A DNA stretch of 64,000 nucleotides from Mesorhizobium sp. (lineage in GTDB: Bacteria; Pseudomonadota; Alphaproteobacteria; Rhizobiales; Rhizobiaceae), in NCBI RefSeq assembly GCF_017306585.1, contig NZ_JAFKIC010000109.1, forward strand, positions 1 to 64,000. Reading direction: 5' to 3'. Below are positions 39,934 to 64,000 of this stretch, in pieces. A model generated the notes under the pieces. It had not been told where the DNA came from, ran no database searches, and was given only the letters and a program-made list of their open reading frames with translations. The number at the start of each line of letters is the position of its first letter. Positions within the stretch are counted from its first letter, which is position 1. Both the position numbers and the translations under genes were made by a program.

Positions 39934-39963
39934 TTGACAGGCAGGCACCTTGCCACGCTACAT
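39934..39963 (+). promoter_or_regulatory. Promoter candidate for the nrdAB riboswitch transcript
   Basis: TTGACA at 39934-39939 and CTACAT at 39958-39963 with an 18-bp spacer, placed immediately before the cobalamin riboswitch. It would start the leader at about 39970. Assigned by consensus match only. Confidence 0.6.
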
Positions 39964-39974
39964 ATAGTCAATCG

Positions 39975-40155
39975 TGGTTCTTTCGAGTCTGTTCGGGCTC
40001 GGAAGCTAAGAGGGAAGCCGGTGAGCGATTTCGCAATGCCGGCGCTGCCCCCGCAACTGTAAGTAGTGAGCTTTTGTCGAGTAACGCCACTGGCGCTCCG
40101 TGCGCTGGGAAGGCCGGCAAGAGTGACGACCTGCGAGCCAGGAGACCTGCCGCGA
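39975..40155 (+). promoter_or_regulatory. Cobalamin riboswitch upstream of nrdAB
   Basis: The conserved B12-aptamer blocks appear in order: GAGGGAAGCCGGTG at about 40010, the B12 box GCGCTGCCCCCGCAACTGTA at 40042-40061, GCCACTGGC at about 40086-40094, CTGGGAAGGCCGGC at about 40105-40118, and the closing GAGCCAGGAGACCTGCC at about 40134-40150. Hairpins between 40160 and 40225 may form the expression platform. Adenosylcobalamin binding is expected to switch off the B12-independent ribonucleotide reductase downstream, as described for nrdAB in Streptomyces. Confidence 0.95.
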
Positions 40156-40271
40156 TGAACTTGAACGTCCACGGGCGGGGTGTCCCGGTGGTGCGCTTGC
40201 TGCGGCTGTCCGTACAGCTGTAGCGAATGCATGCGCCAAGGCCTCCGTCTCCAACACCATCGGGGATCATG

Positions 40272-43166
40272 ATGCCGGCGCCTTCCACCACCCACACCAA
40301 CGGGACCGAACGGGTTCCTTTTCCTATCATCGATACAGCAACCCAGCCTTCGCAGCCGGGCTATCAGGTTATCCGCCGCAACGGCTCGGTGACGCCTTTC
40401 GACGCCACCAAGATCGCGGTTGCGCTGACCAAGGCTTTTCTTGCGGTCGAGGGTTCGGTGGCGGCCGGCTCGCGGCGGGTACACGACGTGGTCGAGGAAT
40501 TGACGGCGCAGGTTTTTGCCGCGCTGACGCGCCGGGCCGATACCGGGCGCACCTTCCACATCGAGGAGATTCAGGATCAGGTGGAACTGGCGCTGATGCG
40601 CAGCGAGCATCACAAGGTGGCGCGCGCCTATGTGCTCTACCGCGACGAGCGCAGCCGCGAGCGCCAGGCGGAGAAGAACAGCCCCACCGTGCCGGCGCCG
40701 GCGGCGCTGCAGGTCAAGGCCGAGGACGGCAGCCTGTCGCCGCTCGACGAGGCGCGGCTGCGGCGCGTCATCGACGAGGCCTGCGCGGGCCTCGACGCGG
40801 TTTCGGCCGAAACGATCCTCACCGAGACCCGGCGCAACCTCTATGACGGTATCACGCTGGATGAACTCTCGCTGGCGCCGATCCTGGCGGCGCGCACGCT
40901 GGTGGAAACCGAGCCGAACTATGCCTTCGTCAGCGCCCGTCTGCTGCTCGACCGCCTGCGGCGCGAGGCGCTGAGTTTCGTTTCGGGTCGCCCGGAACAG
41001 GCCACGCAAAGCGAGATCGCGACCCGCTACGCCAGCTATTTTCCGCAGAGCATCGCCACCGGCATCAAGGCCGAGCTCATCGATCCGGAACTCGGACGCT
41101 TCGACCTCGCGCGGCTTGGTGCGGCGCTGAAGCCGGAGCGTGACCTGCAGTTCCAGTTCCTTGGCCTGCAGACGCTTTACGACCGCTATTTCCTGCACAC
41201 CAAAGGCAAGCGCTTCGAGCTGCCGCAGGCCTTCTTCATGCGCGTCGCCATGGGGCTCGCCGGGCGCGAGATCGACCGCGAGGCGCGCGCCATCGAATTC
41301 TACGACCTGTTGTCGTCCTTCGACTTCATGGCCTCGACCCCGACGCTGTTCAATTCGGGCACGCTCAGGCCGCAACTGTCCTCCTGCTTCCTCACCACGG
41401 TGGCCGATGACCTCGACGGCATTTTCAAGGCGGTGAAGGACAATGCGCTGCTGGCCAAATATTCTGGCGGGCTGGGCAATGACTGGACGCCGGTGCGCGG
41501 ACTCGGCGCCCACATCAAGGGCACCAATGGCGAGAGCCAGGGCATCGTGCCGTTCCTGAAGGTGGCCAACGACACCGCGATCGCCGTCAACCAGGGCGGC
41601 AAGCGCAAGGGTGCGGTCTGCGCCTATCTCGAAACCTGGCATGTCGACATCGAGGAGTTCCTCGACCTCAGGAAGAACACCGGCGACGACCGCCGCCGCA
41701 CGCACGACATGAACACCGCCAACTGGGTGCCGGACCTGTTCATGAGCCGTGTCGAGGCCGATGGCGAGTGGACGCTGTTCTCACCGGATGAGACATCGGA
41801 CCTGCACGACCTCTACGGCAAGGCTTTCAAGACCGCGTACGAAGCCTATGAGGCCAAGGCTGAGACGGGCGCGATCAAGGTGTTCAGGAAGGTCCGCGCG
41901 CTCGACCTCTGGCGCAAGATGCTGACCATGCTGTTCGAGACCGGGCATCCCTGGATCACGTTCAAGGACCCCTGCAACATCCGCTCGCCGCAGGGCCATA
42001 TCGGCGTGGTGCATTCGTCGAACCTGTGCACGGAAATCACGCTGAACACCTCGAAGGACGAGGTGGCGGTGTGCAATCTGGGCTCGGTCAACCTTGCCAA
42101 CCACATCGCGAAGGACGGGCTCGATCTCGCGCATCTGGCGCGCACGGTCGGCACGGCCATGCGCATGCTCGATAATGTCATCGACATCAATTTCTACACC
42201 ATCCCGGAAGCGCGCCAGTCCAACCTGCGCCACCGTCCGGTCGGGCTCGGCCTGATGGGCTTCCAGGACGCGCTGCAGGCGCTGCGCATTCCCTATGCCT
42301 CGAAAGAGGCCGTCGCCTTCGCCGACGCCAGCATGGAAGCGATCGCCTGGAATGCGATCTCGGCCTCTTGCGATCTCGCCGCCGAGCGCGGACGCTATCC
42401 GAGCTTCGAGGGATCGCTGTGGTCGAAGGGTGTGCTGCCGATCGACTCGATCCGCCTTGTGTCCGACGCGCGTGGCACGGTCGTCGACATGGACGGCTCG
42501 TCGAGCCTCGACTGGGAAAGCCTGCGCAAGCGCGTCAGGAAGACGGGCATGCGCAACTCCAACACCATGGCGATCGCGCCGACGGCGACCATCTCCAACA
42601 TCTGCGGCGTGGCGCAGTCGATCGAGCCGGCCTACCAGAACCTGTTCGTCAAATCGAACATGTCGGGCGACTTCACGGTGGTGAACGCCTCGCTTGTGCA
42701 CGACCTCAAGGCGCGCGGCCTGTGGGACGAGGTGATGATCTCGGACCTGAAATATTTCGACGGCTCGCTCGGCCAGATCGACCGCGTTCCCGACGACCTC
42801 AAGGCGCTCTACGCCACCGCCTTCGAGATCGACTCCGCCTGGCTGATCGAGGCGGCGTCGCGGCGCCAGAAGTGGATCGACCAATCGCAGTCGCTCAACC
42901 TCTACATCGCCAATCCCTCGGGCCGGAAGCTCGACGAGCTCTATCGGCTGGCCTGGCGCATGGGTCTGAAGACAACCTACTACCTGCGCTCGCGCTCGGC
43001 CTCGCATGTCGAGAAATCGACGCTGAAGGGCACGGACGGCAAGCTCAACGCGGTGTCGTCGGTGGCGGTCCATGCCGCCCCGCCCGCGCCGATCGTCATC
43101 AGCGAGGGCGCCGCGTGGGGTAAGGCCTGCGCCATCGACGATCCCGAATGCGAGGCGTGCCAGTAG
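40272..43166 (+). CDS. nrdA: Ribonucleoside-diphosphate reductase alpha subunit, class I
   Basis: Catalytic subunit that reduces NDPs to dNDPs. The 964-residue product has an N-terminal ATP-cone (about 30-130; QVIRRNGSVTPFDATKIAVAL), a second ATP-cone-like region (about 140-230; VKAEDGSLSPLDEARLRRVI), then the ten-stranded barrel with LSSCFLTT, NLCTEITL, CNLGSVNLA and MRNSNTMAIAPTATISNI. The C-terminal tail ends ECEACQ, the redox-active Cys pair (C960, C963). The start is ambiguous: 40227, 40269 and 40272 are in frame; 40272 is best spaced from GGGGA. Controlled by the cobalamin riboswitch upstream. Double ATP-cones and overall size recall chlamydial class Ic enzymes. Confidence 0.95.
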   Translation: MPAPSTTHTNGTERVPFPIIDTATQPSQPGYQVIRRNGSVTPFDATKIAVALTKAFLAVEGSVAAGSRRVHDVVEELTAQVFAALTRRADTGRTFHIEEIQDQVELALMRSEHHKVARAYVLYRDERSRERQAEKNSPTVPAPAALQVKAEDGSLSPLDEARLRRVIDEACAGLDAVSAETILTETRRNLYDGITLDELSLAPILAARTLVETEPNYAFVSARLLLDRLRREALSFVSGRPEQATQSEIATRYASYFPQSIATGIKAELIDPELGRFDLARLGAALKPERDLQFQFLGLQTLYDRYFLHTKGKRFELPQAFFMRVAMGLAGREIDREARAIEFYDLLSSFDFMASTPTLFNSGTLRPQLSSCFLTTVADDLDGIFKAVKDNALLAKYSGGLGNDWTPVRGLGAHIKGTNGESQGIVPFLKVANDTAIAVNQGGKRKGAVCAYLETWHVDIEEFLDLRKNTGDDRRRTHDMNTANWVPDLFMSRVEADGEWTLFSPDETSDLHDLYGKAFKTAYEAYEAKAETGAIKVFRKVRALDLWRKMLTMLFETGHPWITFKDPCNIRSPQGHIGVVHSSNLCTEITLNTSKDEVAVCNLGSVNLANHIAKDGLDLAHLARTVGTAMRMLDNVIDINFYTIPEARQSNLRHRPVGLGLMGFQDALQALRIPYASKEAVAFADASMEAIAWNAISASCDLAAERGRYPSFEGSLWSKGVLPIDSIRLVSDARGTVVDMDGSSSLDWESLRKRVRKTGMRNSNTMAIAPTATISNICGVAQSIEPAYQNLFVKSNMSGDFTVVNASLVHDLKARGLWDEVMISDLKYFDGSLGQIDRVPDDLKALYATAFEIDSAWLIEAASRRQKWIDQSQSLNLYIANPSGRKLDELYRLAWRMGLKTTYYLRSRSASHVEKSTLKGTDGKLNAVSSVAVHAAPPAPIVISEGAAWGKACAIDDPECEACQ

Positions 43167-43187
43167 GCGGCGAAAGCCGAGGTGACA

Positions 43188-43217
43188 GCCGATCTCCCCC
43201 ACGAGGGGGAGATTGGC
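43188..43217. repeat. Hairpin between nrdA and nrdB
   Basis: A 13-bp stem (GCCGATCTCCCCC with GGGGGAGATTGGC, one G-U pair) closes an ACGA tetraloop. There is no T-run. From memory, similar CTCCCCC/GGGGGAG hairpins are abundant between genes in Mesorhizobium. Here it may adjust nrdA versus nrdB mRNA levels. Confidence 0.75.
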
Positions 43218-43263
43218 AGCGTCACCGCCGCGCCGTCTCAATAACGAACTGAAGGAAGAAAAA

Positions 43264-44397
43264 ATGCTCGACTGGTCAGAACCCAAAGCGCCGCCCGCCG
43301 GTGCGCTCGCTCCTCTCCCCGCGGCGGAAAAGGCTCCGCTCGCCGATGTCACCGGCCTCGGCCTCATCGAACGCGGCGGCGGTCGTGTTCGTGTCGACGA
43401 CAAGCGCATGATCAACGCGCGTGCCGATGTTAACCAGCTGCTCCCGCTCAAATATCGCTGGGCTTGGGAAAAGTACCTCAACGGCTGCAACAATCACTGG
43501 ATGCCGACCGAAGTGTCGATGCAGGCCGACATCGCGCTGTGGAAGTCGAAGGACGGGCTGACCGATGATGAGCGGCGCATGCTCAAGCGCAATCTCGGCT
43601 TCTTTGCCGCCTCGGAATCGCTGGTCGCCAACAACATCGTGCTCGCCATCTACCGGCATCTCACCAATCCCGAATGCCGGCAGTACCTTTTGCGGCAGGC
43701 CTTCGAGGAGGCGATCCACACGCACACTTTCCAGTACATCGTGGAGAGCCTGTCGCTCGACGAGGGTGAACTGTTCAACATGTACCGCGAGGTGCCGTCG
43801 ATCACCGACAAGGCGGCCTGGGCGCTGAAGCACACGCAGCATCTCGACGATCCGGATTTCCGCACCGGCACGCCGGAAGCCGATCAGGCGTTCCTGCGCG
43901 ACCTCGTCGCTTTCTACGTCATCTTCGAAGGCATGTGGTTCTACACCGGCTTCGCGCAGATCCTGTCGCTGGGACGCCGCAACAAGATGGTGGGGATCGC
44001 CGAGCAGTACCAGTACATATTGCGAGACGAATCCATCCACCTGAATTTCGGTATCGACGTCATCAACCAGATCAAGATCGAGAACCCCCATCTGTGGACA
44101 TCGGCCTTCCAGGACGAGGTGCGCGGCATGATCTCCCAGGCCGCGGCGCTCGAGGCGGCCTATGGCCGTGATACGATGCCGCGCGGGTTCCTCGGCCTCA
44201 ACGCGGCACTGTGCGAAACCTACATGCACTTCATCGCCAACCGGCGCTGCGCCCAGCTTGGCCTGCAGCCGGTATTCGCCGAGGTGGAGAACCCGTTCTC
44301 GTGGATGTCGGAGGCGATGGATCTGAAGAAGGAGAAGAACTTCTTCGAGACGCGCGTTATCGAATACCAGAACGGCGGCGCGCTGGCCTGGGACTGA
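43264..44397 (+). CDS. nrdB: Ribonucleotide reductase beta subunit, class Ic-like
   Basis: Radical-generating subunit, 377 residues, start fixed by GAAGGAAG before the ATG. The six metal ligands align with spacing identical to known R2 proteins: E118 (ASESLVANN), E149 and H152 (EEAIHTHTF), E222 (FEGMWFY), E256 and H259 (RDESIHLNF). The position of the radical tyrosine (Tyr122 in E. coli) is phenylalanine, F156, and the first ligand is Glu where E. coli has Asp. This is the pattern of Chlamydia trachomatis class Ic R2, which uses a Mn(IV)/Fe(III) cofactor instead of a tyrosyl radical. The metal use is inference from these residues. Co-transcribed with nrdA behind a cobalamin riboswitch. Confidence 0.94.
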
Positions 44398-45495: not shown

Positions 45496-45605
45496 CATCG
45501 CCTCCGCCGCTTCGCTTCTTGCCTGTATTCGATAGGGTTATCTAAAAACGCAATTTGAACAGTTCCAGACTGAGGTGCAAAGATTGCCCAAAAGGGGAAA
45601 CCGCC

Positions 45606-48440: not shown

Positions 48441-48476
48441 GAATGCCTTCTTCACGCGTTACCTCGCTGCCAACCT

Positions 48477-48530: not shown

Positions 48531-48640
48531 GTGATTTACGAATTTCACTCTAAGTGGATATTGCGGAGTTGAAAAGCCTGCAGGAACAGCACGGCAGGCC
48601 TGCTCAACAGAGATCAACCAGCGTTCGAGGACATTGCCAC

Positions 48641-50158
48641 GTGAAGTCGCATACAGTTCGCACCTATAAATCCGCCGAGGCGCTGGCGCGCGAGGACCAG
48701 TTGGCCTGGAAGATCGCCGCGGTCGCCGCCGACGCCGTGCCGCTGGACGCGGATGTCGTGGAGATGATCGGCAACCGCATCATCGACAATGCGTCGGTGG
48801 CCGCCGCCTCGCTGGCGCGCCACCCCGTGGCGAGCGCGCGGGCGCAGGCTCTCGCTCATCTCTACCAGCCGGGCGCGACCGTGTTCGGCCTGCCGGCGGC
48901 AAAGCGGGTATCGCCGGAATGGGCCGCCTGGGCGAACGGCGTGGCGGTGCGCGAACTCGATTTCCACGATACGTTCCTGGCCGCCGACTATTCCCATCCT
49001 GGCGACAATATCCCGCCGATTCTGGCGATAGCCCAGCATTGCGGCCTGTCGGGCGCGCAACTCGCCATGGGCCTCGCCGCGGGTTACGAAATTCAGGTCG
49101 ATCTGGTGAAAGGCATCTGCCTGCACGAGCACAAGATCGACCATATCGCCCATCTCGGGCCGTCGGCCGCCGCCGGCATCGGCGCGGCGCTGGGTCTGCC
49201 GACCGAAGTGATCTATCAGGCCGTGCAGCAGGCTCTGCATGTCACCACCACCACGCGCCAGTCTCGCAAGGGCGAGATTTCAAGCTGGAAGGCCTATGCG
49301 CCCGCTTTCGCCGGCAAGATGGCCGTCGAGGCCGTGGACCGGGTGCTTCGCGGCGAGGGCGCGCCGTCGCCGGCCTGGGAGGGCGAGGACGGGTTCATCG
49401 CCTGGCTGCTCGGCGGGCCGAAAGCCGAATACCGTGTACCGCTGCCGGCGAAGGGGGAGGCCAAGCGCACCATCCTCGACACCTACACCAAAGAGCACTC
49501 GGCCGAATACCAGAGCCAGGCGCTGATCGACCTGGCCCGCCGCATGGGGCCGCGTATCGGCGATCTCTCAAAGGTGGCGGGCATCCTCATCCATACCAGC
49601 CACCACACCCACAATGTGATCGGCACCGGCGCCAACGATCCGCAGAAGATGGACCCGAAGGCCAGCCGTGAAACGCTCGACCACTCGATCATGTACATCT
49701 TCGCCGTCGCGCTGGAGGATGGCGGCTGGCACCATGAGCGCTCCTACGCACCGGAGCGAGCGAACCGGCCGGCGACAGTGGCGCTATGGCGCAAGATCAG
49801 CACCGTCGAGGACCCGGAATGGACGCGGCGCTATCACAGTCATGATCCCAGGGAAAAGGCATTCGGCGGCCGCGTCGTCGTCACGCTCGCCGATGGCCGC
49901 GTCATCGAAGACGAACTTGCCATCGCCGACGCCCATCCGCTGGGCGCGAGGCCCTTTGCCCGGCCCGACTACGTCAACAAGTTCCGCACGCTGGCCGACG
50001 GGATCGTCACCAGAGCCGAGCAGGACCGTTTCCTGGTGACGGTCGAGCACCTCCTGGACCTCAAGCCGGAGGAACTGACGGGGCTGAACTTCGCCGTCGA
50101 GGCCGACAGGCTGGGGCCGGCGGCGGCCACCGGAATTTTCGATTGGAAGCCGCTCTAA
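48641..50158 (+). CDS. prpD: 2-methylcitrate dehydratase
   Basis: Dehydrates 2-methylcitrate to 2-methyl-cis-aconitate in the methylcitrate cycle. The 505-residue product belongs to the MmgE/PrpD family: [23 protein letters not shown], an all-helical first domain, and the second domain with [12 protein letters not shown] and [15 protein letters not shown]. The start is a GTG at 48641 with GAGGA nine bases upstream; an in-frame ATG at 48554 would add 29 residues unlike the family. It leads prpDCB-queH. The cycle lets the cell burn propionyl-CoA without the B12-dependent methylmalonyl-CoA mutase. Confidence 0.93.
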
Positions 50159-50182
50159 CTCATTGTTTCAGGGGAGGACGAC

Positions 50183-51349
50183 ATGACCACACCCGCGCCC
50201 AAGAAGTCGGTCGCGCTGTCCGGCGTCATCGCCGGCAACACGGCGCTTTGCACAGTGGGGCGAACCGGCAACGACCTGCACTATCGGGGCTATGACATTC
50301 TCGACATCGCCGAGACCTGCGAGTTCGAGGAGATCGCGCATCTCCTCGTGCATGGCACGCTGCCGACCCTGGTCGAACTCGCGGCCTACAAGGCCAGGCT
50401 CCGGGCGCTGCGCGGACTGCCGCAGGTGGTGAAGCGGACGCTGGAACTGCTGCCGGCCAGCACGCATCCGATGGACGTGATGCGCTCGGGCGTTTCGGCG
50501 CTGGGCTGCGCGCTGCCCGAGGCGTCCGACCACAACCATCCGGGAGCCCGCGACATCGCGGACCGGCTGTTGGCATCCTTGGGTTCGATGCTGCTCTACT
50601 GGCACCATTTCGCTCACAACGGCCGGCGCGTGGAGGTCGAGACCGACGACGAGACGATAGGCGGGCATTTCCTTCACCTGCTGCATGGCTCGGCGCCCAG
50701 GCCCTCGCATGTCAAGGCGATGCATGTCTCGCTCATCCTCTATGCGGAGCACGAGTTCAACGCCTCGACCTTCACCGCGCGCTCGATTGCCGGAACCGGC
50801 TCCGATTTCTATTCGGCGATCACCGGCGCGATCGGCGCGCTGCGTGGCCCAAAGCACGGCGGCGCCAACGAGGTGTCCTACGAAATCCAGAAGCGCTACG
50901 CCCATCCGGACGAGGCGGAGGCCGATATCAGGCGCCGCGTCGAGGCCCGGGAAGTGGTCATCGGCTTCGGCCATCCCGTCTATACGCTCGCCGATCCGCG
51001 CAACAGGGTGATCAAGACCGTGGCAAGGCAACTTTCGGTGGACGCGGGCTCGACCAGGATGTTCGACATCGCCGAGCGCATCGAGACGACCATGGCCGAC
51101 GCCAAGAAGATGTTCGCCAACCTCGACTGGTTCAGCGCCGTCTCCTACCATATGATGGGCGTTCCGACGGCGATGTTCACGCCGCTGTTCGTCATCTCGC
51201 GCATGTCCGGCTGGGCGGCGCATATCATCGAGCAGCGGCAGGACAACAAGATCATCCGTCCATCCGCCAACTATACCGGGCCGGACAATGTGGAGTTCGT
51301 GCCGATCGAACGCCGCGGGCGCGCCAATGCCGGCCAGAAGGCGGCCTGA
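50183..51349 (+). CDS. prpC: 2-methylcitrate synthase
   Basis: Condenses propionyl-CoA with oxaloacetate. It is a 388-residue member of the citrate synthase family, shorter than GltA and without its N-terminal extension. Key parts are [28 protein letters not shown], the [14 protein letters not shown] region with catalytic His, and [15 protein letters not shown] with the second His. The GRTG and GYDI sequence near the N-terminus is typical for PrpC. GGGGAGGA precedes the ATG. It follows prpD by 24 bp and precedes prpB by 9 bp. Confidence 0.94.
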
Positions 51350-51358
51350 GGAAAAGAC

Positions 51359-52279
51359 ATGCCCTATCTCGTAGCTTCCGACCTTCCCGAACAGCCTGCC
51401 GGCGAGCGCTTCCGGATGCTGGTCGAGCGTGGCGGGATCCTGCCGCTGCCCGGCGCGCATAATGGCATGGCCGGCCTGCAGGCGAAGGCGGCGGGCTTCG
51501 AGGCGCTCTACCTTTCGGGCGCGGCGATGACCGCGTCGATGGGACTGCCCGACCTCGGCATCATCACGGTCGACGAGGTGGCGTTCTTCATCCGCCAGAT
51601 CTCGCGCGCAAGCGGGCTGCCGCTGCTCGTCGACGGCGACACCGGCTACGGCGAGGCGCTCAACGTCATGCACATGGTGCGCAGCTTCGAGGATGCCGGC
51701 GCGGGCGCGGTGCACATAGAGGACCAGCTGCTGCCCAAGAAATGCGGCCATCTCAACGACAAGAAGTTGGCCGACGCCCACGACATGGCGGCCAAGGTCG
51801 CCGCCGCCGCCAGGGCGCGGCGCCATCTCTACCTGATCGCGCGCACCGATGCGGCGGCCAGCGAAGGGCTCGACGGCGCGGTGGCGCGTGCTCGGCTCTA
51901 CATCGAAGCCGGCGCCGACGCGATCTTCCCCGAGGCGCTCAATACGGCGGAGATGTTCCGGACCTTCGCCGCGCGCATGCCCGGCGTGCCGCTGCTGGCC
52001 AACATGACCGAGTTCGGCCGCACGCCGTTCTTCACCGCGTCGGAGTTCCAGGAGATGGGCTACCGCATGGTGATCTGGCCGGTTTCGTCGCTGCGCGTCG
52101 CCAACAAGGCGCAGGAGAGACTCTATACGGCGATCGCCCGCGACGGCGGCGCCCACCGCATGGTCGAGGCGATGCAGACCCGCGCTGAACTCTATGCGAC
52201 GATCGGCCTGCACGACTATGAGGCACTCGACCAGTCCATCGTGCAGACCATCATCCCGGAAGGCATGCCGCAGCGTTGA
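51359..52279 (+). CDS. prpB: 2-methylisocitrate lyase
   Basis: Splits 2-methylisocitrate into pyruvate and succinate. The 306-residue TIM barrel of the isocitrate lyase/PEP mutase superfamily shows [51 protein letters not shown] (with the catalytic KKCGH loop) and [16 protein letters not shown]. All active-site elements are intact. It completes the three cycle-specific enzymes with prpD and prpC. queH follows after 22 bp, so it is probably in the same transcript. Confidence 0.95.
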
Positions 52280-52301
52280 AAAAGCTGCCGAAGACCGTTT
52301 C

Positions 52302-52964
52302 ATGACCGATTTCGAGCGGCCGATCCTCACCCCGCCGGATGGCCACCGCAAGGTGCTGCTGCATTCGTGTTGCGCGCCTTGTTCGGGTGAGGTCATGGAG
52401 GCGATGCTGGCGTCCGGCATCGACTACACGATCTTCTTCTACAACCCCAACATCCATCCCGAGCGTGAGTACCTGCTGCGCAAGGACGAGAATATCCGCT
52501 TCGCCGAAACGCACGGCGTCGGCTTTGTCGATGCCGATTACGACAAGGACAACTGGTTCGCACGCGCCAAGGGCATGGAATGGGAGCCGGAGAGGGGCAT
52601 CCGATGCACAATGTGCTTCGACATGCGGTTCGAGCGCACCGCGCTGCATGCGCATGAGCACGGCTTTCCGGTGATGACCAGTTCGCTGGGTATCTCGCGC
52701 TGGAAGAACATGCAGCAGATCAACGATTGCGGCCACCGTGCGGCCGCGCCCTACCAAGGGCTTGCCTATTGGGATTTCAACTGGCGCAAGGGCGGCGGCT
52801 CGGCGCGCATGATCGAGATCAGCAAGCGCGAGGAGTTCTACCAACAGGAATATTGCGGCTGCGTCTATTCGCTGCGCGACACCAACCTGCACCGGCGCCA
52901 GCAGGGGCGGGAGCCTATTGAACTCGGCAAGATGTTCTACAGCCGCGCCGAAGAGAAATCCTGA
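52302..52964 (+). CDS. queH: Epoxyqueuosine reductase QueH (cobalamin-independent)
   Basis: Last step of queuosine tRNA modification, reducing epoxyqueuosine. The 220-residue product is of the QueH (former DUF208) family: [16 protein letters not shown] near the N-terminus, [15 protein letters not shown] in the middle, [16 protein letters not shown], and the C-terminal [11 protein letters not shown]. These cysteines form the iron-sulfur and metal site. It is the non-B12 alternative to QueG, which needs cobalamin. The location 22 bp after prpB suggests co-transcription with the propionate genes, an unexpected pairing. Confidence 0.92.
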
Positions 52965-53121: not shown

Positions 53122-56931
<3,810 letters not shown>

Positions 56932-57297: not shown

Positions 57298-57315
57298 GTC
57301 CTTGAGCGCGAGGAC
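57298..57315 (+). promoter_or_regulatory. Shine-Dalgarno sequestering hairpin, Rieske leader
   Basis: GTCCT at 57298-57302 pairs with AGGAC at 57311-57315, which is the ribosome binding site six bases before the GTG start at 57321. The same arrangement occurs in the sister leader at 58961-58977. It is the probable translational output of the riboswitch. Confidence 0.65.
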
Positions 57316-57320
57316 GGAAC

Positions 57321-58556
57321 GTGGACGTACGCACCGACATGCTGAGCCGGCTTGGGAACCGCAGCCCCGGCTTCACCCTGGAGCAGCCTTTTTACATCGA
57401 CCCCGAATACTTCAAGGTTGACATGGAGCTGATCTGGTATCGCGACTGGCTGTTCGTCGGCCATGACTGCGAGATCGCCAAACCCGGCAGCTTCTTCACC
57501 GTCCAGGTTGGCGACTATCCCATCGTGATCGTGCGCGACCAGAAGGGCGACATCAATGCGTTCCACAATTCCTGTCGCCATCGCGGCAGCCGTGTCTGCA
57601 CGGCCGACAAGGGGCAGGCGGCAAAGCTCGTCTGTCCTTACCACCAATGGACCTACGAACTGGACGGCAAGCTGCTGTTCGCCAGACAGATGGCCGACGG
57701 CTTCGACAAGAGCCAGTTCGGGCTGAAGCCGGTCGCCTGCGAAAGCGTCGGCGGCTACATCTTCATCTGCCTGGCGAAGGAGCCTTCGGATTTCGCGCCG
57801 ACGCGGGCGGCCCTGGGACCTTATCTCACGCCGCATCGGCTGAGCGAGGCCAAGGTCGCCTTCGAGAGCACGATCATCGAGAAAGGCAACTGGAAGCTGG
57901 TCTGGGAAAACAACCGCGAGTGCTATCACTGCGCGGCCAATCACCCGGAACTGTGCAAGACCTTGTCCGAGGCGCCGGGCCTCGTCGGCATCGATGGCGA
58001 TCCTGAAATGATCGAGCATTGGGACGCATGCGAAGCCGTAGGCCTGCCGAGCAGGTTCCACATCGATCCGGCCGGCCAGTATCGCGCCACGCGCGCGCCG
58101 CTGCTGCGCGATGCGCTGAGCTACACCTTGACCGGAAGGCGCGCGGTCAGGAAAAACCTCTCCGACAGCGTGCCGCTCGAGCGGATCGGCTCGTTGATGC
58201 TGTTCCACTATCCCAACACATGGAACCATGTTCTCGTCGACCAGGCGGTCTCTTTCCGGGTCATCCCGATCAGCGCCACCGAGACCGCGGTGACGACCAA
58301 GTGGCTGGTGCACAAGGATGCGGTCGAGGGCGTCGACTACGACCTCGAGGAACTCATCCATGTCTGGCAGGAAACCAACGACCAGGACCGCCGCATCGTC
58401 GAGGAAAATGCTTTCGGCATCCACTCGCCAGCCTATGAGCCCGGTCCCTATTCGGCGGTGCATGAAGAGGGGCCGATGCAGTTCGTCGACTGGTATGCGC
58501 GGTTCATCGGGCCAAGGCTGGAGGACCGCAATTTGGGCCTGCGCAACGTCGCCTGA
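57321..58556 (+). CDS. Rieske oxygenase alpha subunit, GbcA-like, riboswitch-controlled
   Basis: Oxygenase of 411 residues with a GTG start. The Rieske cluster motif is C85-R-H87 ... C105-P-Y-H108, and the iron site region is NRECYHCAANHPELC, as in quaternary-ammonium demethylases (GbcA, Stc2). It is a paralogue of the gene at 45606. It is preceded by a cobalamin riboswitch and followed by a second one with BHMT and formaldehyde dehydrogenase genes. In glycine betaine breakdown GbcA releases formaldehyde, which the FdhA-like enzyme could oxidise, so betaine or a related methylated amine is the leading substrate. No reductase gene is present here. Confidence 0.88.
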   Translation: MDVRTDMLSRLGNRSPGFTLEQPFYIDPEYFKVDMELIWYRDWLFVGHDCEIAKPGSFFTVQVGDYPIVIVRDQKGDINAFHNSCRHRGSRVCTADKGQAAKLVCPYHQWTYELDGKLLFARQMADGFDKSQFGLKPVACESVGGYIFICLAKEPSDFAPTRAALGPYLTPHRLSEAKVAFESTIIEKGNWKLVWENNRECYHCAANHPELCKTLSEAPGLVGIDGDPEMIEHWDACEAVGLPSRFHIDPAGQYRATRAPLLRDALSYTLTGRRAVRKNLSDSVPLERIGSLMLFHYPNTWNHVLVDQAVSFRVIPISATETAVTTKWLVHKDAVEGVDYDLEELIHVWQETNDQDRRIVEENAFGIHSPAYEPGPYSAVHEEGPMQFVDWYARFIGPRLEDRNLGLRNVA

Positions 58557-58676
58557 CGGCTCGGCCTGATCCAGCGGCAGAGGTTTGCTGGACCAACGGG
58601 CCAATTGTCGTCTTTGCGTTTGGCCAATGTCGTTTTCGTATGGACGGCAGCCGGACCCCGGTGATTAGATCGCCAT

Positions 58677-58866
58677 GTTCAAGGTGCCCTTCGGCTGTCC
58701 GGCCGGAGGGATAATTGGGAAGCCGGTGAGAATCCGGCGCTGCCCCCGCAACGGTAGCGAAGCTTACGTTTCGACTTATGCCACTGGGTCCGAAAGCCCG
58801 GGAAGGTGTCGAAACGGGTCCGCAAGGACGGCTTCGGAGCCCGGAAACCAGCCTCGAACGAATTGG
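58677..58866 (+). promoter_or_regulatory. Cobalamin riboswitch upstream of the 99-aa gene and BHMT
   Basis: Conserved blocks in order: AAGGTGCCC at 58681, GGGATAATTGGGAAGCCGGT at 58708-58727, B12 box GCGCTGCCCCCGCAACGGTA at 58737-58756, GCCACTGGG at about 58780, CCGGGAAGGTGTC, and GCCCGGAAACCAGCC at about 58839-58853. It is very similar to the riboswitch at 57012, including 30 identical bases just after the aptamer (58866-58895). The untranslated leader then continues to 58981. Confidence 0.96.
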
Positions 58867-58960
58867 AACTCGACTGATCGCGGTGGGCGGTCAAGAGGCA
58901 GATGCGGATCGGCCGAAAGGCCGACAGGTCCGTGGCTTTCCTCCATCACCACCAGGTTCA

Positions 58961-58977: not shown

Positions 58978-58981
58978 GAAC

Positions 58982-59281
58982 ATGGATTCGTACAATGAAG
59001 TATCCGGGCTCGCCCCCGGCAGGCCGGGCGCCCAGCACGAGCCACGCAAGCGCGATCCGGCGACGATGGCCGCCGTTTCACCCTTGCCTCCACCGGAAGA
59101 GGTTTTCGCCGATTGGCTGCTGTCGGTGCCGCATGACGCCGATCTGGCGCACGCGGCGAGATGCCAGATCGATCTCATCGACCGACGCCTTTCGCTGCAT
59201 CCCGACGTGCAGGTGTTGCGCACGCTGCTTGCCGCCGTTGCCGGCACCAGCGTCCGGGCCGCACCCGTAACCAACCTCTGA
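58982..59281 (+). CDS. Unknown 99-residue protein in the B12-riboswitch operon
   Basis: I do not recognise this protein. The first 35 residues are Pro/Arg/Gly-rich and probably disordered (GLAPGRPGAQHEPRKRD). The remainder looks like a compact helical domain: PPEEVFADWLLSVPHDADLA, then AARCQIDLIDRRLSLHPDVQ, then LRTLLAAVAGTS. There is one cysteine, no signal peptide and no membrane span. The start at 58982 has AAGGAC five bases upstream, inside a conserved hairpin. It is the first gene behind a cobalamin riboswitch and 29 bp before BHMT, so it probably acts with BHMT or in the response to low B12. The longer frame to 58778 lies within the riboswitch and is rejected. Confidence 0.75.
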   Translation: MDSYNEVSGLAPGRPGAQHEPRKRDPATMAAVSPLPPPEEVFADWLLSVPHDADLAHAARCQIDLIDRRLSLHPDVQVLRTLLAAVAGTSVRAAPVTNL

Positions 59282-59310: not shown

Positions 59311-60372
59311 ATGTCTGCCAAATCACCCATCCCGGCAAAGCGCGGCCTGCTCGAACGCCTCGACACCGACGCCGTCATCTGCGCCGAGGGCTATCTGTTC
59401 GAACTCGAACGCCGTGGCTATCTCCAGGCCGGGCCGTTCGTGCCCGAGGTCGTCATCGAGCATCCCGAAGCCGTGACGCGCCTGCACGAGGACTTCGTCC
59501 ATGCCGGCTCGGAAGTCGTCGAGGCTTTCACCTATTACGCGCACCGCCAGAAGCTGAAAGTGATCGGCCGCGAGGACATCCTCGAGAAGATCAATCGCCA
59601 GGCGCTGCGCATCGCCAAGGATGTGGCGGACCGCGTTGGCGACCTGATGGCCGGCAACATCTGCAACACCAATGCCTATGAAGCCACGGACAAGAAGACC
59701 CATGATGCCGTGCGCGCCATGTTCGAGGAACAGATCGGCTGGGCAGTGGAGGAGGGCGCCGACTTCCTGATCGCCGAGACCATCGACTGGTATGGCGAGG
59801 CCGAGATCGCTCTCGACGTGATGAAGAAGACCGGTCTGCCGACCGTGGTCACGCTTTCGGTCCACCGCGAGGAGAAGATGTTCGATGGCGTCTCCGTCGT
59901 CGATGCCTGCAAGCGGCTGGAGGCCGCCGGCGCCGATGTGGTCGGGTTGAACTGCCAGCGCGGACCGAAGACGCTAATGCCGGTGGTGCGCAAGGTGCGC
60001 GATGCCGTGTCCTGCCATGTCGCCTCGCTGCCGGTGCCCTACCGCACGACCGAAGCGGAGCCTACCTTCCAGTCTCTGACCGACCGCGCCTGCTCCTGCA
60101 TTCCCGGCAACCGGCCTTTCCCGACCGCGCTCGATCCGTTCACCTGCAATCGCTACGAATGCGCCGAATATGCCCGCGAAGCCTACGATATGGGCGTGCG
60201 CTACATCGGGCTCTGCTGCGGAGCGGCACCCCATCATATCCGCGCGGTCGCCGAGGCACTGGGCCGCACCGTTCCGGGAAGCCGTTATTCGCCCGACATG
60301 TCGAAGCACGCTTTCTTCGGCAGTGATGCGGCGATCCCGGACGCATACAAGGGCCGCCGCGTCGATATCTGA
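59311..60372 (+). CDS. Betaine-homocysteine S-methyltransferase
   Basis: Zn-dependent homocysteine methyltransferase of 353 residues, predicted to use glycine betaine as methyl donor and yield methionine and dimethylglycine. The zinc ligands are C215 (LNCQRGPKT) and C302-C303 (GLCCGAAPHHIRA), spaced as in human BHMT (217, 299, 300). The N-terminus GLLERLDTDAVICAEGYLFELERRGYL matches the BHMT opening. It carries no cobalamin domain, so it makes methionine without B12, which fits the riboswitch control upstream. Dimethylglycine- or S-methylmethionine-using relatives remain possible. A 139-bp gap separates it from the fdhA-like gene. Confidence 0.88.
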   Translation: MSAKSPIPAKRGLLERLDTDAVICAEGYLFELERRGYLQAGPFVPEVVIEHPEAVTRLHEDFVHAGSEVVEAFTYYAHRQKLKVIGREDILEKINRQALRIAKDVADRVGDLMAGNICNTNAYEATDKKTHDAVRAMFEEQIGWAVEEGADFLIAETIDWYGEAEIALDVMKKTGLPTVVTLSVHREEKMFDGVSVVDACKRLEAAGADVVGLNCQRGPKTLMPVVRKVRDAVSCHVASLPVPYRTTEAEPTFQSLTDRACSCIPGNRPFPTALDPFTCNRYECAEYAREAYDMGVRYIGLCCGAAPHHIRAVAEALGRTVPGSRYSPDMSKHAFFGSDAAIPDAYKGRRVDI

Positions 60373-60511
60373 ATGCGCTTCGTGCCCGGCCGATCGCGAT
60401 GGAGACGGGAGTAGCGTCGCATCGGCTGGCATCACGGGAAACAGTTGCACCTGAACAAGCAGCCCGGCGGCGGACCGCCGGGCGGGAAGTCAACAGCAAG
60501 GGAGGAAGTCC

Positions 60512-61702
60512 ATGAGCAGGAACAGAGGCGTGGTCTATGTCGGACCGGGCAAGGTGGAGGTGCGCGACATTCCGGATCCGGTTTTCGCGGCGCCGGACGG
60601 GCGCAAGATCGAGCATGCCGTGATCCTGAAAGTGATCTCCACCAATATCTGCGGCTCCGACCAGCACATGGTGCGCGGCCGCACCACGGCCGAACCCGGC
60701 CTGGTGCTCGGCCATGAGATCACCGGCGAAATCATCGAGAAAGGCAGCGATGTCGAGATGCTCGAGGTCGGCGACATCGTGTCGGTGCCCTTCAACGTCG
60801 CTTGCGGCCGCTGCCGCTGCTGCAAGGCGCAGGACACCGGCGTGTGCCTCACCGTCAACCCGGCGCGTGCCGGCGGCGCCTATGGTTATGTCGACATGGG
60901 AGGCTGGATCGGCGGTCAGGCCCGCTACGTGACGGTTCCCTATGCCGATTTCAACCTGCTCAGGTTCCGCGACCGTGACCGGGCGATGGAGAAGATCCGC
61001 GACCTCACCATGCTTTCAGACATCCTGCCGACCGGCTTCCATGGCGCGGTGAAGGCCGGCGTTGGGGTGGGGTCCACCGTTTATGTCGCGGGCGCTGGCC
61101 CGGTCGGTCTTGCCGCCGCCGCCTCTGCGCGCATTCTTGGCGCTGCGGTGGTCATGATCGGCGACTTCAACAAGGAGCGTCTGGCGCATGCGGGCAAGGT
61201 CGGCTTCGAGCCGATCGATCTTTCCGCCAGTGACCGTCTAGGCGACATGATCGCCGAGGTGACGGGTAGCAACGAAGTCGACTGCGCAATCGACGCGGTC
61301 GGCTTCGAGGCGCGCGGCCATAGCGGCGGCGAACAGCCGGCCGTTGTGCTCAACCAGATGATGGAGATCACCCGTCCGGCGGGCTCGATCGGCATTCCCG
61401 GCCTCTATGTGACGGAGGATCCCGGCGCGGTCGACAATGCCGCCAAGCACGGCAATCTGTCGGTGCGTTTCGGCCTCGGCTGGGCGAAGGCACAGTCGTT
61501 CCATACCGGGCAGACTCCCGTCGTGAAATACCATCGCCAGCTGATGCAGGCGATCCTGCACGACCGCTTGCCGATAGCCGACATCGTCAACGCCAAGGTG
61601 ATCAGCCTGGAAGAGGCGGTGCAGGGCTATGAGAGTTTCGACCAGGGCGCCGCACGCAAATTCGTGCTCGACCCACACGGCGACATCCTGAACGCTGCCT
61701 GA
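60512..61702 (+). CDS. fdhA: Zn-dependent formaldehyde dehydrogenase (glutathione-independent)
   Basis: Medium-chain dehydrogenase of 396 residues. Catalytic zinc region NICGSDQHMVRGRT and GHEITGE, structural zinc cysteines CGRCRCCKAQDTGVC, and the nucleotide-binding AGAGPVGLAAAASARILGA are all present. The N-terminal VYVGPGKVEVRDIPDP and the inserted region are those of Pseudomonas-type FdhA, which oxidises formaldehyde to formate with bound NAD. AGGGAGGA precedes the ATG. In betaine breakdown clusters fdhA removes the formaldehyde released by demethylases, consistent with the Rieske and BHMT genes here. Confidence 0.9.
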   Translation: MSRNRGVVYVGPGKVEVRDIPDPVFAAPDGRKIEHAVILKVISTNICGSDQHMVRGRTTAEPGLVLGHEITGEIIEKGSDVEMLEVGDIVSVPFNVACGRCRCCKAQDTGVCLTVNPARAGGAYGYVDMGGWIGGQARYVTVPYADFNLLRFRDRDRAMEKIRDLTMLSDILPTGFHGAVKAGVGVGSTVYVAGAGPVGLAAAASARILGAAVVMIGDFNKERLAHAGKVGFEPIDLSASDRLGDMIAEVTGSNEVDCAIDAVGFEARGHSGGEQPAVVLNQMMEITRPAGSIGIPGLYVTEDPGAVDNAAKHGNLSVRFGLGWAKAQSFHTGQTPVVKYHRQLMQAILHDRLPIADIVNAKVISLEEAVQGYESFDQGAARKFVLDPHGDILNAA

Positions 61703-61716
61703 CGGCCCGCGTCCTG

Positions 61717-61814
61717 GAGCGGTTCAGCGTTTGATAGAATCGCTGACCCGCTCTAACTATCTGTTTTTACGCAATTCCGGACGCAAAACCGCTTCGCACT
61801 TTTGCTGGAATTGC
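61717..61814. repeat. Composite palindromic repeat element
   Basis: Two adjacent hairpins. The first has 13-base arms, GAGCGGTTCAGCG (61717-61729) and CGCTGACCCGCTC (61741-61753), with one mismatch. The second pairs GCAATTCC plus GCAAAA (from 61771) with TTTTGC plus GGAATTGC (ending 61814). From memory, the second is very like a dispersed element seen in many Mesorhizobium intergenic regions. It lies between the convergent fdhA and metE genes. A further 9-bp inverted repeat (GTGCCGCCA / TGGCGGCAC) is at 61831-61857 just beyond the metE stop. Confidence 0.75.
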
Positions 61815-61865
61815 TTTGGCCGAGGTAACGGTGCCGCCAACTATCTGCTGGCGGCACCTGACCGA

Positions 61866-64000
61866 TTAGGCAACTGTGCGCAATTGCCTCGCCGCTTCCA
61901 CCATATTGACCAGCGCCGGCCGAACCTCTTCCCAACCACGTGTCTTGAGGCCGCAATCGGGATTGATCCACAGTTGCGTGTCGCTGAGGCGCTCACGGGC
62001 CAGCGTCATCAGATCGATCATCTCGCCGACTGCCGGGACACGAGGTGAGTGGATGTCATAGACGCCGGGACCGATCTCATTCAGATACTTGTGGGTCCGG
62101 AAGGCGTCGAGAAGCTCCATCTTCGATCGTGATGTTTCGATCGAGATGACATCCGCGTCCATGGCGCTGATCGCATCGAGGATGTCGTTGAATTCCGAAT
62201 AGCACATATGGGTATGGATCTGCGTGCCGTCACCGACGCCGGAGGAGGCGAGGCGGAAGCAGTCGACAGCCCAGTCGAGATAGGTCTTCCAGTCGGATTT
62301 GCGCAGTGGCAGGCCTTCACGCAAGGCTGCTTCATCGATCTGGATCATGGCGGCCTCCGCCGCTTCGAGGTCGATAACCTCGTCGCGAATGGCGAGCGCG
62401 ATCTGGCGGCAGGTCTCGTTGCGCGGGATGTCGTCGCGCACGAATGACCAGTTCAGGATGGTCACTGGCCCGGTCAGCATGCCTTTCATGGGCTTTTGCG
62501 TCAGCGATTGCGCGTATTGCCACCATGCGACCGTCATCGGCCGCGGCCGCGAGACGTCGCCGAATATGATTGGCGGTCGGACGTAGCGAGATCCATAGCT
62601 CTGCACCCAGGCATGCCTGGTGAATGCGAAGCCCGAGAGCTGCTCGCCGAAATACTGCACCATGTCGTTGCGTTCGAATTCGCCATGCACCAGCACGTCG
62701 AGGCCGATTTCCTCCTGCCAGCGGACGGCCGCGGCGGTCTCCCTCTCCAGGAAGGACTGATAGTCGATATAGCTCAATTCGCCCTTGGCGTGGTCGGCGC
62801 GCGCCTTGCGCACCTGCGCGGTCTGCGGAAACGAACCGATCGTCGTGGTGGGAAAACTCGGCAGGCCGAGCTTCCGCGCCTGGAGCTCTTGGCGCGTGGC
62901 GAAGTCGCTATGCCGGTGCCGCATGGTCTCGGTGACGCCCAGCAGGCGCCCCTCGACCAATGGATCGTGAACCTTGAGCGACGATGCGCGCGATTGAACG
63001 GCTGCGGCCGATGCCTGCAACTCCTTTGAAACCACATCCTTGCCAGCGCCAAGCGCATCCGCAAGCAGCGTGAGTTCGTCCATCTTCTGGATCGAAAAGG
63101 AGAGCCAGGATCTGAGGTCAGGGTCCAGGCCGGTTTCCAGTTCCACGTCGATCGGAACATGGAGGAGCGAACAGGACGGCGCAATCTCGATCCGGTCGAG
63201 CGGCCAGCCAGCCACGATCGGTCTGATGTGGTCGAGAATGGCCGGCAGGTCCGCCCGCCAGACATTGCGACCGTCGATCAATCCGAGCGACAGGATCTGG
63301 TCTTTACGGGAGAGGCGGGAAACCGGCTCAAGCTGTTCCGGTGCCCTTACCAGGTCGACGTGTAACCCGGCCACCGGCAAGGCAAGGGCTGTTTCCAGAT
63401 TGTCGCCCAGGCCGCCGAAATAGGTGGCCAGCATGATGTTGATATCCGGCACCGTCGTGGAGAACCGCTGATACGCAAGTTCGAGGCCGATACGCTCGGC
63501 CGGGTCGAGGTCGAGGGCGAGACAGGGCTCATCGATCTGCACCCACCTGGCGCCGGCTTGCGACAGTTGCTGAAGGAGTTGAACGTAAACCGTTATCAGC
63601 CTCGGCAGCAAGGATATCGGGTTGAAACCGCCACCACGCGATTTGGCCAGCTTGAGAAAGGTTACCGGCCCAAGAATGACTGGACGCGTGCGGATACCGA
63701 GAGCCGCCGCCTCACGAAACTCGCCGAGCGGCTTGGTCGAACAGAGTTCAAACGTCTGGTCGGCCGACAATTCGGGGACCATGTAGTGATAGTTGGTGTC
63801 GAACCACTTCGTCATCTCGAGCGCTGCGACACCGTTGGCATGAGGGCCATGATTGCAGGCAGCGGAGTCATGATCGCCCTGATTGCCTCGGGCCATCGCG
63901 AAATAGACATCGAGCGGAACCTCGCCGCCGGTCCAGCCATATTCTTTCGGGATCGCGCCGACCATGACGGCCGTGTCGAGGACATGATCGTAAAGCGAAA
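61866..64000 (-). CDS. metE: Cobalamin-independent methionine synthase, 5' end missing
   Basis: Transfers methyl directly from methyltetrahydropteroyl-triglutamate to homocysteine. About 711 residues are visible; the frame stays open to the right edge, where SLYDHVLDTAVMVG matches the region near residue 70 of E. coli MetE, so some 60-70 N-terminal residues are outside. Landmarks include EMTKWFDTNYHYMVPE, WVQIDEPCLALDL, and the zinc site with IHTHMCYSEF (His and Cys) and the C-terminal NPDCGLKTRGW (Cys). With metH and BHMT it is the third methionine-forming enzyme within 11 kb. MetE genes are often under B12 riboswitches; its leader is not in the window. Confidence 0.96.
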   Translation of the reverse strand, partial: SLYDHVLDTAVMVGAIPKEYGWTGGEVPLDVYFAMARGNQGDHDSAACNHGPHANGVAALEMTKWFDTNYHYMVPELSADQTFELCSTKPLGEFREAAALGIRTRPVILGPVTFLKLAKSRGGGFNPISLLPRLITVYVQLLQQLSQAGARWVQIDEPCLALDLDPAERIGLELAYQRFSTTVPDINIMLATYFGGLGDNLETALALPVAGLHVDLVRAPEQLEPVSRLSRKDQILSLGLIDGRNVWRADLPAILDHIRPIVAGWPLDRIEIAPSCSLLHVPIDVELETGLDPDLRSWLSFSIQKMDELTLLADALGAGKDVVSKELQASAAAVQSRASSLKVHDPLVEGRLLGVTETMRHRHSDFATRQELQARKLGLPSFPTTTIGSFPQTAQVRKARADHAKGELSYIDYQSFLERETAAAVRWQEEIGLDVLVHGEFERNDMVQYFGEQLSGFAFTRHAWVQSYGSRYVRPPIIFGDVSRPRPMTVAWWQYAQSLTQKPMKGMLTGPVTILNWSFVRDDIPRNETCRQIALAIRDEVIDLEAAEAAMIQIDEAALREGLPLRKSDWKTYLDWAVDCFRLASSGVGDGTQIHTHMCYSEFNDILDAISAMDADVISIETSRSKMELLDAFRTHKYLNEIGPGVYDIHSPRVPAVGEMIDLMTLARERLSDTQLWINPDCGLKTRGWEEVRPALVNMVEAARQLRTVA

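What the first reader, a model, noticed from the sequence alone, without database searches (positions are those of the whole stretch)
39934..64000. Candidate B12-sparing island: B12-independent isozymes gathered around three cobalamin riboswitches
Seen: three cobalamin aptamers within 19 kb, plus nrdAB, prpDCB, queH, BHMT and metE, with metH in the middle. Known: class I RNR replaces NrdJ, the methylcitrate cycle replaces methylmalonyl-CoA mutase, QueH replaces QueG, and MetE/BHMT replace MetH; each replaced enzyme uses cobalamin. Inference: this stretch gathers the cell's fallback enzymes for low B12. The prp-queH part has no riboswitch of its own, so it may be tied to B12 only indirectly, through propionyl-CoA build-up when the mutase is idle.
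Basis: partly seen in the sequence, partly recalled or inferred. Interest (0 to 1): 0.85.

Follow-up and report, generated by a model that had tools for sequence, protein, structure and literature searches.

The report
Riboswitch-controlled vitamin B12 backup gene island
A soil bacterium related to legume symbionts keeps side by side a set of enzymes that do without vitamin B12, each unit behind its own B12-sensing RNA switch, and one of them looks like an oxygen-using backup for the B12-dependent breakdown of glycine betaine.

Summary
NrdJ, MetH, methylmalonyl-CoA mutase, QueG and a corrinoid betaine-demethylation (mtg) cluster are also encoded.

The order [RS]nrdAB-[RS]Rieske-reductase-ORF99-metE[RS] recurs, with variants, in several related genomes. 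prpDCB-queH does not, has no RS and its own regulator; it looks like an insert.

Main result: the RS-Rieske-reductase unit is widespread and best read as a GbcAB-type, O2-dependent betaine demethylase backing up corrinoid MtgBCD. In 53 Rhizobiaceae genomes with the orthologue, RS and corrinoid methyltransferase (MTTB) go together: 36 both, 15 neither, 1 and 1 discordant; about 10 changes each on the tree. Class I RNR and NrdJ follow the same rule (18 both, 2 neither). Formaldehyde dehydrogenase, useful to the oxidative route, sits behind the same RS type.

An RS before the S. meliloti 'dioxygenase' SMc00982 was listed in 2007; my paper searches found no function for it. Substrate and B12 response are inferred.

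The parts
39958..40168 (+). cobalamin riboswitch 1, upstream of nrdAB
   Evidence: RF00174, 131.4 bits; 78% identical to the metE riboswitch
40227..43166 (+). nrdA, class I ribonucleotide reductase alpha (start may be 40269)
   Evidence: NF005544 1713 bits; start by gene caller
43213..44397 (+). nrdB, class I ribonucleotide reductase beta
   Evidence: NF005550 673 bits
44470..48455 (.). LysR regulator (-), another Rieske oxygenase 45555-46928 (+, 47-48% identical to the riboswitch-linked one, no riboswitch), RamB/PrpR-type regulator 47034-48455 (-): judged an insert, not part of the island
48554..52964 (+). prpD, prpC, prpB, queH: B12-independent functions, no riboswitch, not found with the island in relatives
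53122..56931 (+). metH, cobalamin-dependent methionine synthase; also near the riboswitch-Rieske unit in several relatives
   Evidence: NF007024 2149 bits
57002..57202 (+). cobalamin riboswitch 2, upstream of the Rieske oxygenase
   Evidence: RF00174, 115.4 bits
57203..57223 (+). conserved hairpin after the aptamer; loop GCGGTGGGC can pair with GCCCCCGC of the aptamer, one base bulged (kissing-loop platform, inferred)
   Evidence: sequence; kissing-loop architecture recalled
57298..57315 (+). possible hairpin GTCCT/AGGAC over the ribosome-binding site of the Rieske gene
   Evidence: sequence; Shine-Dalgarno pairing statistics in named relatives
57321..58556 (+). Rieske oxygenase of the GbcA/Stc2 branch, proposed B12-independent betaine demethylase; paralogue of the C326 copy
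58665..58870 (+). cobalamin riboswitch 3, upstream of ORF99-BHMT-fdhA; 82% identical to riboswitch 2
   Evidence: RF00174, 110 bits
58961..58977 (+). possible hairpin GTCCTT/AAGGAC over the ribosome-binding site of ORF99
   Evidence: sequence
58982..59281 (+). ORF99, small protein with no Pfam match; four relatives share SPLPPPEE(V/I)FADWL
59311..60372 (+). homocysteine S-methyltransferase of the mammalian BHMT branch
   Evidence: 213.7 bits to 1umy; Pfam S-methyl_trans on the longer frame
60512..61702 (+). fdhA, glutathione-independent formaldehyde dehydrogenase
   Evidence: TIGR02819 705.5 bits, cut-off 637
61866..64000 (-). metE, B12-independent methionine synthase (continues to 64211; riboswitch 64302-64519 outside the window)

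Best explanation
This is a low-cobalamin island. Each riboswitch is expected to shut its gene when cobalamin is bound and to allow expression when it is scarce. Then NrdAB stands in for NrdJ, MetE (and probably the BHMT-like enzyme) for MetH, and the Rieske oxygenase, probably with the reductase encoded on C326, for the corrinoid-dependent betaine demethylase MtgBCD. The corrinoid route hands the methyl group of glycine betaine to folate; the Rieske route uses O2 and releases formaldehyde, which FdhA removes. Shown: the anatomy, both members of each pair in the genome, recurrence of the cluster in related genomes, and the association of the gbcA and nrd riboswitches with their B12-dependent counterparts. 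Inferred: the substrate (glycine betaine), the OFF direction of the switches, translational control, the electron partner, and use of betaine by the BHMT-like protein. prpDCB-queH is not part of it.
For: Riboswitches. Counterparts in the genome; mtg cluster (MTTB, MtgC-like corrinoid protein, MtgD-like, MTHFR, RACo, DUF1638). Riboswitch upstream of Rieske orthologues: 18 of 20 loci, 5 of 9, 13 more; 55 of 80 named loci by nhmmer (some named loci are the same genomes as unnamed ones, for example L164 and G073). Riboswitch against MTTB in 53 Rhizobiaceae genomes with an orthologue of at least 60% identity: 36 both (own genome included), 15 neither, 1 riboswitch only (G094), 1 MTTB only (G102); Fisher p 4e-11, not corrected for relatedness. 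On the Rieske tree (quick method) each trait changes 10 times; independent pairs on starred branches: 5-6 of 6 (pairs chosen by MTTB) and 5-6 of 7 (chosen by riboswitch) agree, none opposes, p 0.03-0.06. Controls: the 16 genomes without the riboswitch have 1-5 RF00174 matches elsewhere, and NrdJ is present in 50 of 52 genomes. Substrate clue: in G097 (no MTTB, no riboswitch) the orthologue lies with a betaine-type ABC transporter, a GbdR-like regulator and soxB. Parallel: class I RNR has a riboswitch in 18 of 18 genomes with NrdJ and in 0 of 2 without. fdhA: after riboswitch-BHMT here and in G063, behind its own riboswitch in G106, and after [RS]Rieske-reductase in S. fredii USDA 205, there as two tblastn pieces.
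Against: The Rieske proteins are below the GbcA cut-off (503 and 521 against 670 bits) and score as high against the structures 3vca/4qup, recalled as the stachydrine demethylase Stc2. The 60% cut-off matters: the 55-57% relatives of G090 and G098 have MTTB in the genome but no riboswitch (G002, 54%, has neither); with these three the table is 36, 1, 3, 16. Outside the family the association is weaker: 7 of 7 genomes with the riboswitch have MTTB, but so do 6 of 12 without it (p 0.04). G094 and G102 are discordant. Genomes often have several MTTB genes; the matching one was not identified. The window Rieske gene lacks an adjacent reductase. GbdR-, GbcB- and MtgC-like matches are below curated cut-offs. 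No expression data.
Confidence: 0.72

Rival explanations
1. The Rieske unit demethylates another quaternary amine (proline betaine, carnitine and the like) and backs up a different member of the MTTB family; the island logic stays the same.
For: Structures 3vca and 4qup (recalled as stachydrine demethylase Stc2) score as high as any; many genomes have several MTTB genes.
Against: Neighbours of the orthologue in G097 are a betaine-type transporter, a GbdR-like regulator and soxB; genes clustering with soxA, serine ammonia-lyase, an OYE-family gene (DgcA by recall) or the GbdR-like regulator lie beside the 54-57% relatives in G090, G098 and G002 (cluster membership, one representative scanned each).
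Confidence: 0.22
2. The Rieske enzyme supplies one-carbon units, glycine or methyl groups for methionine synthesis at low B12, and is not a stand-in for a corrinoid demethylase.
For: It clusters with metE, metH and the BHMT-like gene.
Against: Of 16 genomes with the Rieske orthologue but no MTTB, 15 lack the riboswitch although they have other cobalamin riboswitches; fdhA would dispose of the formaldehyde.
Confidence: 0.1
3. One reading: the whole stretch, with prpDCB-queH, is one B12-sparing island.
For: The B12-dependent counterparts of the methylcitrate cycle and QueH are in the genome.
Against: No riboswitch, own regulator, not recognised in the 20 loci nor the 80; relatives have nrdB close to [RS]gbcA without it.
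Confidence: 0.06
4. The association of riboswitch and MTTB is mostly shared ancestry: some clades kept both, others lost both.
For: Agrobacterium, R. leguminosarum-type and Brucellaceae loci in the named set lack the riboswitch together (MTTB not tested in those records).
Against: About 10 changes of each trait on the tree with concordant independent pairs; in one syntenic neighbourhood the riboswitch is present in some genomes and absent in others.
Confidence: 0.1

Closest known systems
Cobalamin riboswitch control of metE (and of nrdABS in Streptomyces, recalled)
   Same: RF00174 aptamer upstream of B12-independent isozymes; [quoted passage not shown] metE/metH logic tested in PMC9600662 (passages).
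   Different: Here four such units are gathered, with a Rieske oxygenase and a BHMT-like/fdhA operon as further targets.
GbcAB glycine betaine monooxygenase (Pseudomonas, Chromohalobacter)
   Same: Rieske oxygenase plus GbcB-like reductase; relatives beside betaine catabolic genes.
   Different: Below the curated GbcA and GbcB cut-offs; behind a cobalamin riboswitch in nearly all sampled genomes that also have MTTB.
MtgBCDE, aerobic cobalamin-dependent betaine demethylation and methionine synthesis (PMC12478193; outline, passages and sections 5, 7, 9 read)
   Same: A similar gene set lies on contig C305 of this genome.
   Different: It is the proposed B12-dependent counterpart; the word riboswitch occurs in that paper once, in a reference title.
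SMc00982 of Sinorhizobium meliloti
   Same: Cobalamin riboswitch listed upstream (PMC2245857 and PMC2573895; passages); 'likely encoding a dioxygenase', grouped with sugar catabolism (PMC2848018; passage).
   Different: No B12 or betaine function in the passages read; orthology to the window gene was not checked by sequence, only suggested by orientation and by the S. medicae and S. fredii loci (L237, L190).
MesX/MesD O2-dependent methionine synthase (PMC7857596; passages)
   Same: In G062 a MesX gene, a PRK09121 core methionine synthase (MesD by recall) and a flavin reductase take the metE position of the island behind a riboswitch.
   Different: Not present in the window island.

Membership tests
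Cobalamin riboswitch (RF00174) | score above the curated gathering threshold, full-length model | tested here: met
   three in the window, 110-131 bits, model 1-189; fourth 126 bits
Cobalamin riboswitch (RF00174) | binds cobalamin and represses | not testable with these tools
   needs in-line probing or a reporter assay
GbcA glycine betaine monooxygenase (NF058607) | curated score cut-off 670 bits | tested here: not met
   502.8 (window) and 521.2 (C326)
GbcA glycine betaine monooxygenase (NF058607) | Rieske and ring-hydroxylating catalytic domains with a GbcB-like reductase | tested here: inconclusive
   both domains present; GbcB-like reductase, 298 bits against a cut-off of 500, beside the C326 copy; none beside the window copy
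GbcA glycine betaine monooxygenase (NF058607) | activity on glycine betaine | not testable with these tools
   gene context only
BHMT | zinc cysteines of the homocysteine methyltransferase fold | tested here: met
   GLNC and LCCG aligned to rat and human BHMT
BHMT | betaine-site residues of human BHMT (Asp26, Trp44, Tyr77, Glu159, Tyr160; recalled) | tested here: inconclusive
   Tyr77 and Glu159 kept; Asp26 is E, Trp44 is F, Tyr160 is T (read by eye)
Mtg corrinoid betaine demethylase cluster (contig C305) | MTTB, corrinoid protein, pterin methyltransferase, RACo and MTHFR together | tested here: met
   MtgC models matched below cut-off
Mtg corrinoid betaine demethylase cluster (contig C305) | acts on glycine betaine | not testable with these tools
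   inferred from similarity

The most novel reading that the evidence does not exclude
Glycine betaine N-demethylation is an unrecognised B12-dependent/B12-independent isozyme pair (MtgBCD against GbcAB plus FdhA), joined with ribonucleotide reductase and methionine synthase into mix-and-match islands that trade cobalt for oxygen: class I RNR, MesX and Rieske backups need O2 (RNR and Rieske recalled), their cobalamin counterparts do not. A simple rule governs the wiring: a backup carries a cobalamin riboswitch only where its B12-dependent partner is encoded, so riboswitches can point to partner functions of unknown genes such as ORF99.
Probability: 0.5. Interest if true: 0.8.

Novelty: new variant of a known kind. 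Interest (0 to 1): 0.7.

Why it matters
Cobalamin-dependent betaine demethylation in aerobic bacteria was reported in 2025 (PMC12478193). If right, this shows how soil and plant-associated bacteria keep using betaine when B12 is short, proposes a function for a riboswitch target listed since 2007, and gives a comparative rule (the riboswitch tracks the presence of the B12-dependent partner) that could assign functions to other riboswitch-linked genes. It links cobalt supply, oxygen and the use of a common osmolyte, and can be tested directly in laboratory rhizobia.

Tried and rejected
Rejected: prpDCB-queH as an island member. Rejected: that the missing riboswitches reflect general loss of cobalamin riboswitches or of B12 use. 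Not adopted: a plain GbcA or BHMT label. A motif search missed two riboswitches (L104, L112) that Rfam then found and gave a box in L130 that Rfam did not confirm; the Rfam result was used. L140-L143 were tested by motif and nhmmer only. Outside the family the test is weak. Fold prediction was not used.

Dropped before counts: of 72 family genomes with a Rieske match, 19 had only matches under 60% identity and are not in the 53-genome table; G090, G098 (MTTB, no riboswitch) and G002 (neither) are among them. 13 tree rows bore no label. Class I RNR was found through cross-matches of the NrdJ model, so genomes with it may have been missed; for G035, G147, G131, G121 and G062 the nrd riboswitch rests on motif or nhmmer searches, not Rfam. 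The Shine-Dalgarno pairing comparison (paired in 41 of 51 riboswitch loci with a recognisable site, of 55; 6 of 20, of 25 without the riboswitch; 43 of 111, of 300 control genes) uses many near-identical Mesorhizobium sequences and is only suggestive.

Paper searches in open-access PMC only: from listings and the passages read, no paper linked a cobalamin riboswitch to a Rieske/GbcA demethylase by function. Most listed papers were not opened, among them the two that hold both terms (PMC5317091, PMC4465626). PMC8123684 was seen in passages.
Full report
WHAT IS THERE. The three cobalamin riboswitches are real and strong, and a fourth precedes metE just beyond the window edge. The four units are [RS]nrdAB; [RS]Rieske oxygenase; [RS]ORF99-BHMT-like-fdhA; and metE[RS] on the other strand. 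The genome (7.09 Mb, 385 contigs) has 11 RF00174 matches; the other seven lie at a TonB receptor (BtuB-like), DUF1636-cobW, a DUF1636/ABC transporter unit, cbtA (twice, one weak at 32.9 bits), bluB, and a second Rieske-reductase unit on C326. Four of 11 in 24.6 kb is unlikely by chance (5.5e-5 in a uniform model). NrdJ, methylmalonyl-CoA mutase and QueG are encoded elsewhere and MetH in the window.

THE ISLAND IN RELATIVES. Compact forms were found in several related genomes: [RS]nrdAB-[RS]Rieske-reductase-ORF99-metE[RS] in L085 (G131) and L184; the same without a recognised ORF99 in L083 (G035); [RS]nrdAB-[RS]Rieske-reductase-ORF99-BHMT in L187 and in L094/L189 (apparently one genome, G121), where metE was not seen in the stretch; and in L097 (G062) MesX, a PRK09121 core methionine synthase and a flavin reductase behind a riboswitch in the metE position. 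In G106 three successive units are metE[RS], class Ib nrd[RS] and fdhA[RS]. The full island is a minority arrangement: among 80 named Rieske loci with flanks of up to 8 kb, nrdA was found in 4, ORF99 in 3, the BHMT-like gene in 2, metH in 2, metE in 1 and fdhA in 1. prp and queH genes were not recognised in the 20 loci nor (queH, prpC) in the 80; in the window they stand, with a LysR gene, another Rieske gene and metH, between nrdAB and riboswitch 2.

THE RIESKE UNIT. The window protein matches the structures 3vca/4qup (516 bits; recalled as Stc2) and the GbcA model (503 bits, below the 670 cut-off). It is a paralogue (80-81% identity) of the C326 copy, which has a GbcB-like reductase beside it. 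Riboswitches 2 and 3 and that of C326 are 82% identical to one another and 66-72% to those of nrdA and metE, so the BHMT-fdhA operon seems to have taken its switch from the gbcA type. After the aptamer they share GACTGATCGCGGTGGGCGGTC; its loop can pair with GCCCCCGC of the aptamer, as in known kissing-loop platforms (recalled). In named loci with the riboswitch the ribosome-binding site is predicted paired in 41 of 51 cases with a recognisable site (55 loci), against 6 of 20 without the riboswitch (25 loci) and 43 of 111 control genes (300 drawn); related sequences inflate this. Translational control is likely, not shown.

THE PARTNER TEST. Of 151 genomes sampled from the family (own included), 53 have an orthologue at 60% identity or more. 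Riboswitch and MTTB methyltransferase are both present in 36, both absent in 15; G094 has the riboswitch alone (a weak 61-bit match) and G102 has MTTB alone. Three genomes with 54-57% relatives, left out by the cut-off, have no riboswitch; two of them (G090, G098) have MTTB. Each trait changes 10 times on the Rieske tree; 5-6 of 6, or 5-6 of 7, independent pairs agree and none opposes (p 0.03-0.06). The 16 genomes without the riboswitch have 1-5 RF00174 matches elsewhere, and NrdJ is present in 50 of 52 genomes (49 above cut-off, G008 split over two contigs; G096 and G081 lack it). In the class-wide sample (19 other genomes), 7 of 7 with the riboswitch have MTTB, against 6 of 12 without. Ribonucleotide reductase follows the same rule: 18 genomes with NrdJ and a class I enzyme have the riboswitch (own genome; 12 by Rfam; five by motif or nhmmer), and the two without NrdJ do not (Fisher p 0.005).

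WHY GLYCINE BETAINE. The MTTB gene on C305 of this genome lies with an MtgC-like corrinoid protein, an MtgD-like pterin methyltransferase, MTHFR, DUF1638 and RACo, resembling the set that demethylates glycine betaine in aerobic marine bacteria (PMC12478193; sections 5, 7, 9 read). Where MTTB and riboswitch are both missing, the orthologue of G097 sits with a betaine-type transporter, a GbdR-like regulator (below cut-off) and soxB. Of nine more distant (43-47%) Rieske genes from genomes without MTTB, six lie beside genes of the sox clusters. FdhA would remove the formaldehyde that the oxidative route produces: it follows the BHMT-like gene behind one riboswitch here and in G063, has its own riboswitch in G106, and follows [RS]Rieske-reductase in S. 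fredii USDA 205.

LIMITS. No expression or enzyme data; the OFF direction is taken from known cobalamin riboswitches. The substrate could be another betaine. The BHMT-like protein keeps the zinc cysteines but not all betaine-site residues (roles recalled), and its gene is rare (3 of 151 family genomes; 15 of 385 class genomes).

KNOWN AND NEW. Riboswitch control of metE is known; nrdABS control in Streptomyces is recalled. A riboswitch before S. meliloti SMc00982, 'likely encoding a dioxygenase', has been listed (PMC2245857, PMC2573895, PMC2848018; passages). New here, as far as the named open-access searches show, are the functional reading of that unit, its link to the corrinoid route, the island, and the partner rule.

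Noticed in passing
L097 (G062) 13166-15964: MesX, a PRK09121 core methionine synthase and a flavin reductase lie behind a cobalamin riboswitch (motif/nhmmer) next to nrdAB and the Rieske unit, suggesting that MesX/MesD is a low-B12 methionine synthase.
   Followed up: partly
window 58982-59281; L084, L085, L090, L097: ORF99: small protein shared by these riboswitch loci (SPLPPPEE(V/I)FADWL), no Pfam match for the window copy.
   Followed up: partly
L270, L271, L272, L273, L276, L277: NrdE-type (about 28% identical to the window NrdA) operons also sit behind cobalamin riboswitches in genomes that have NrdJ; the L270 protein was confirmed as class Ib.
   Followed up: partly
L280 (G106) 4590-8022: fdhA has its own cobalamin riboswitch; a further riboswitch-like match (nhmmer) lies downstream of fdhA before an unidentified 345-aa gene and a TonB siderophore-type receptor.
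   Followed up: partly
L113 (G094) 6187-6381: Weak riboswitch (61 bits) before the Rieske gene in a genome without MTTB: perhaps decaying after loss of the partner.
   Followed up: no
window 44470-46928: LysR gene divergent from a Rieske oxygenase of another branch, no riboswitch; a LysR-Rieske pair also occurs in G020 (L142).
   Followed up: no
L081 (G104) 5338-7419: TonB-dependent receptor behind a riboswitch (motif search) directly after the Rieske-reductase unit.
   Followed up: no
L094 (G121) 8423-9986: CobF and a periplasmic binding protein (BtuF-like by guess) lie between [RS]nrdAB and [RS]Rieske.
   Followed up: no
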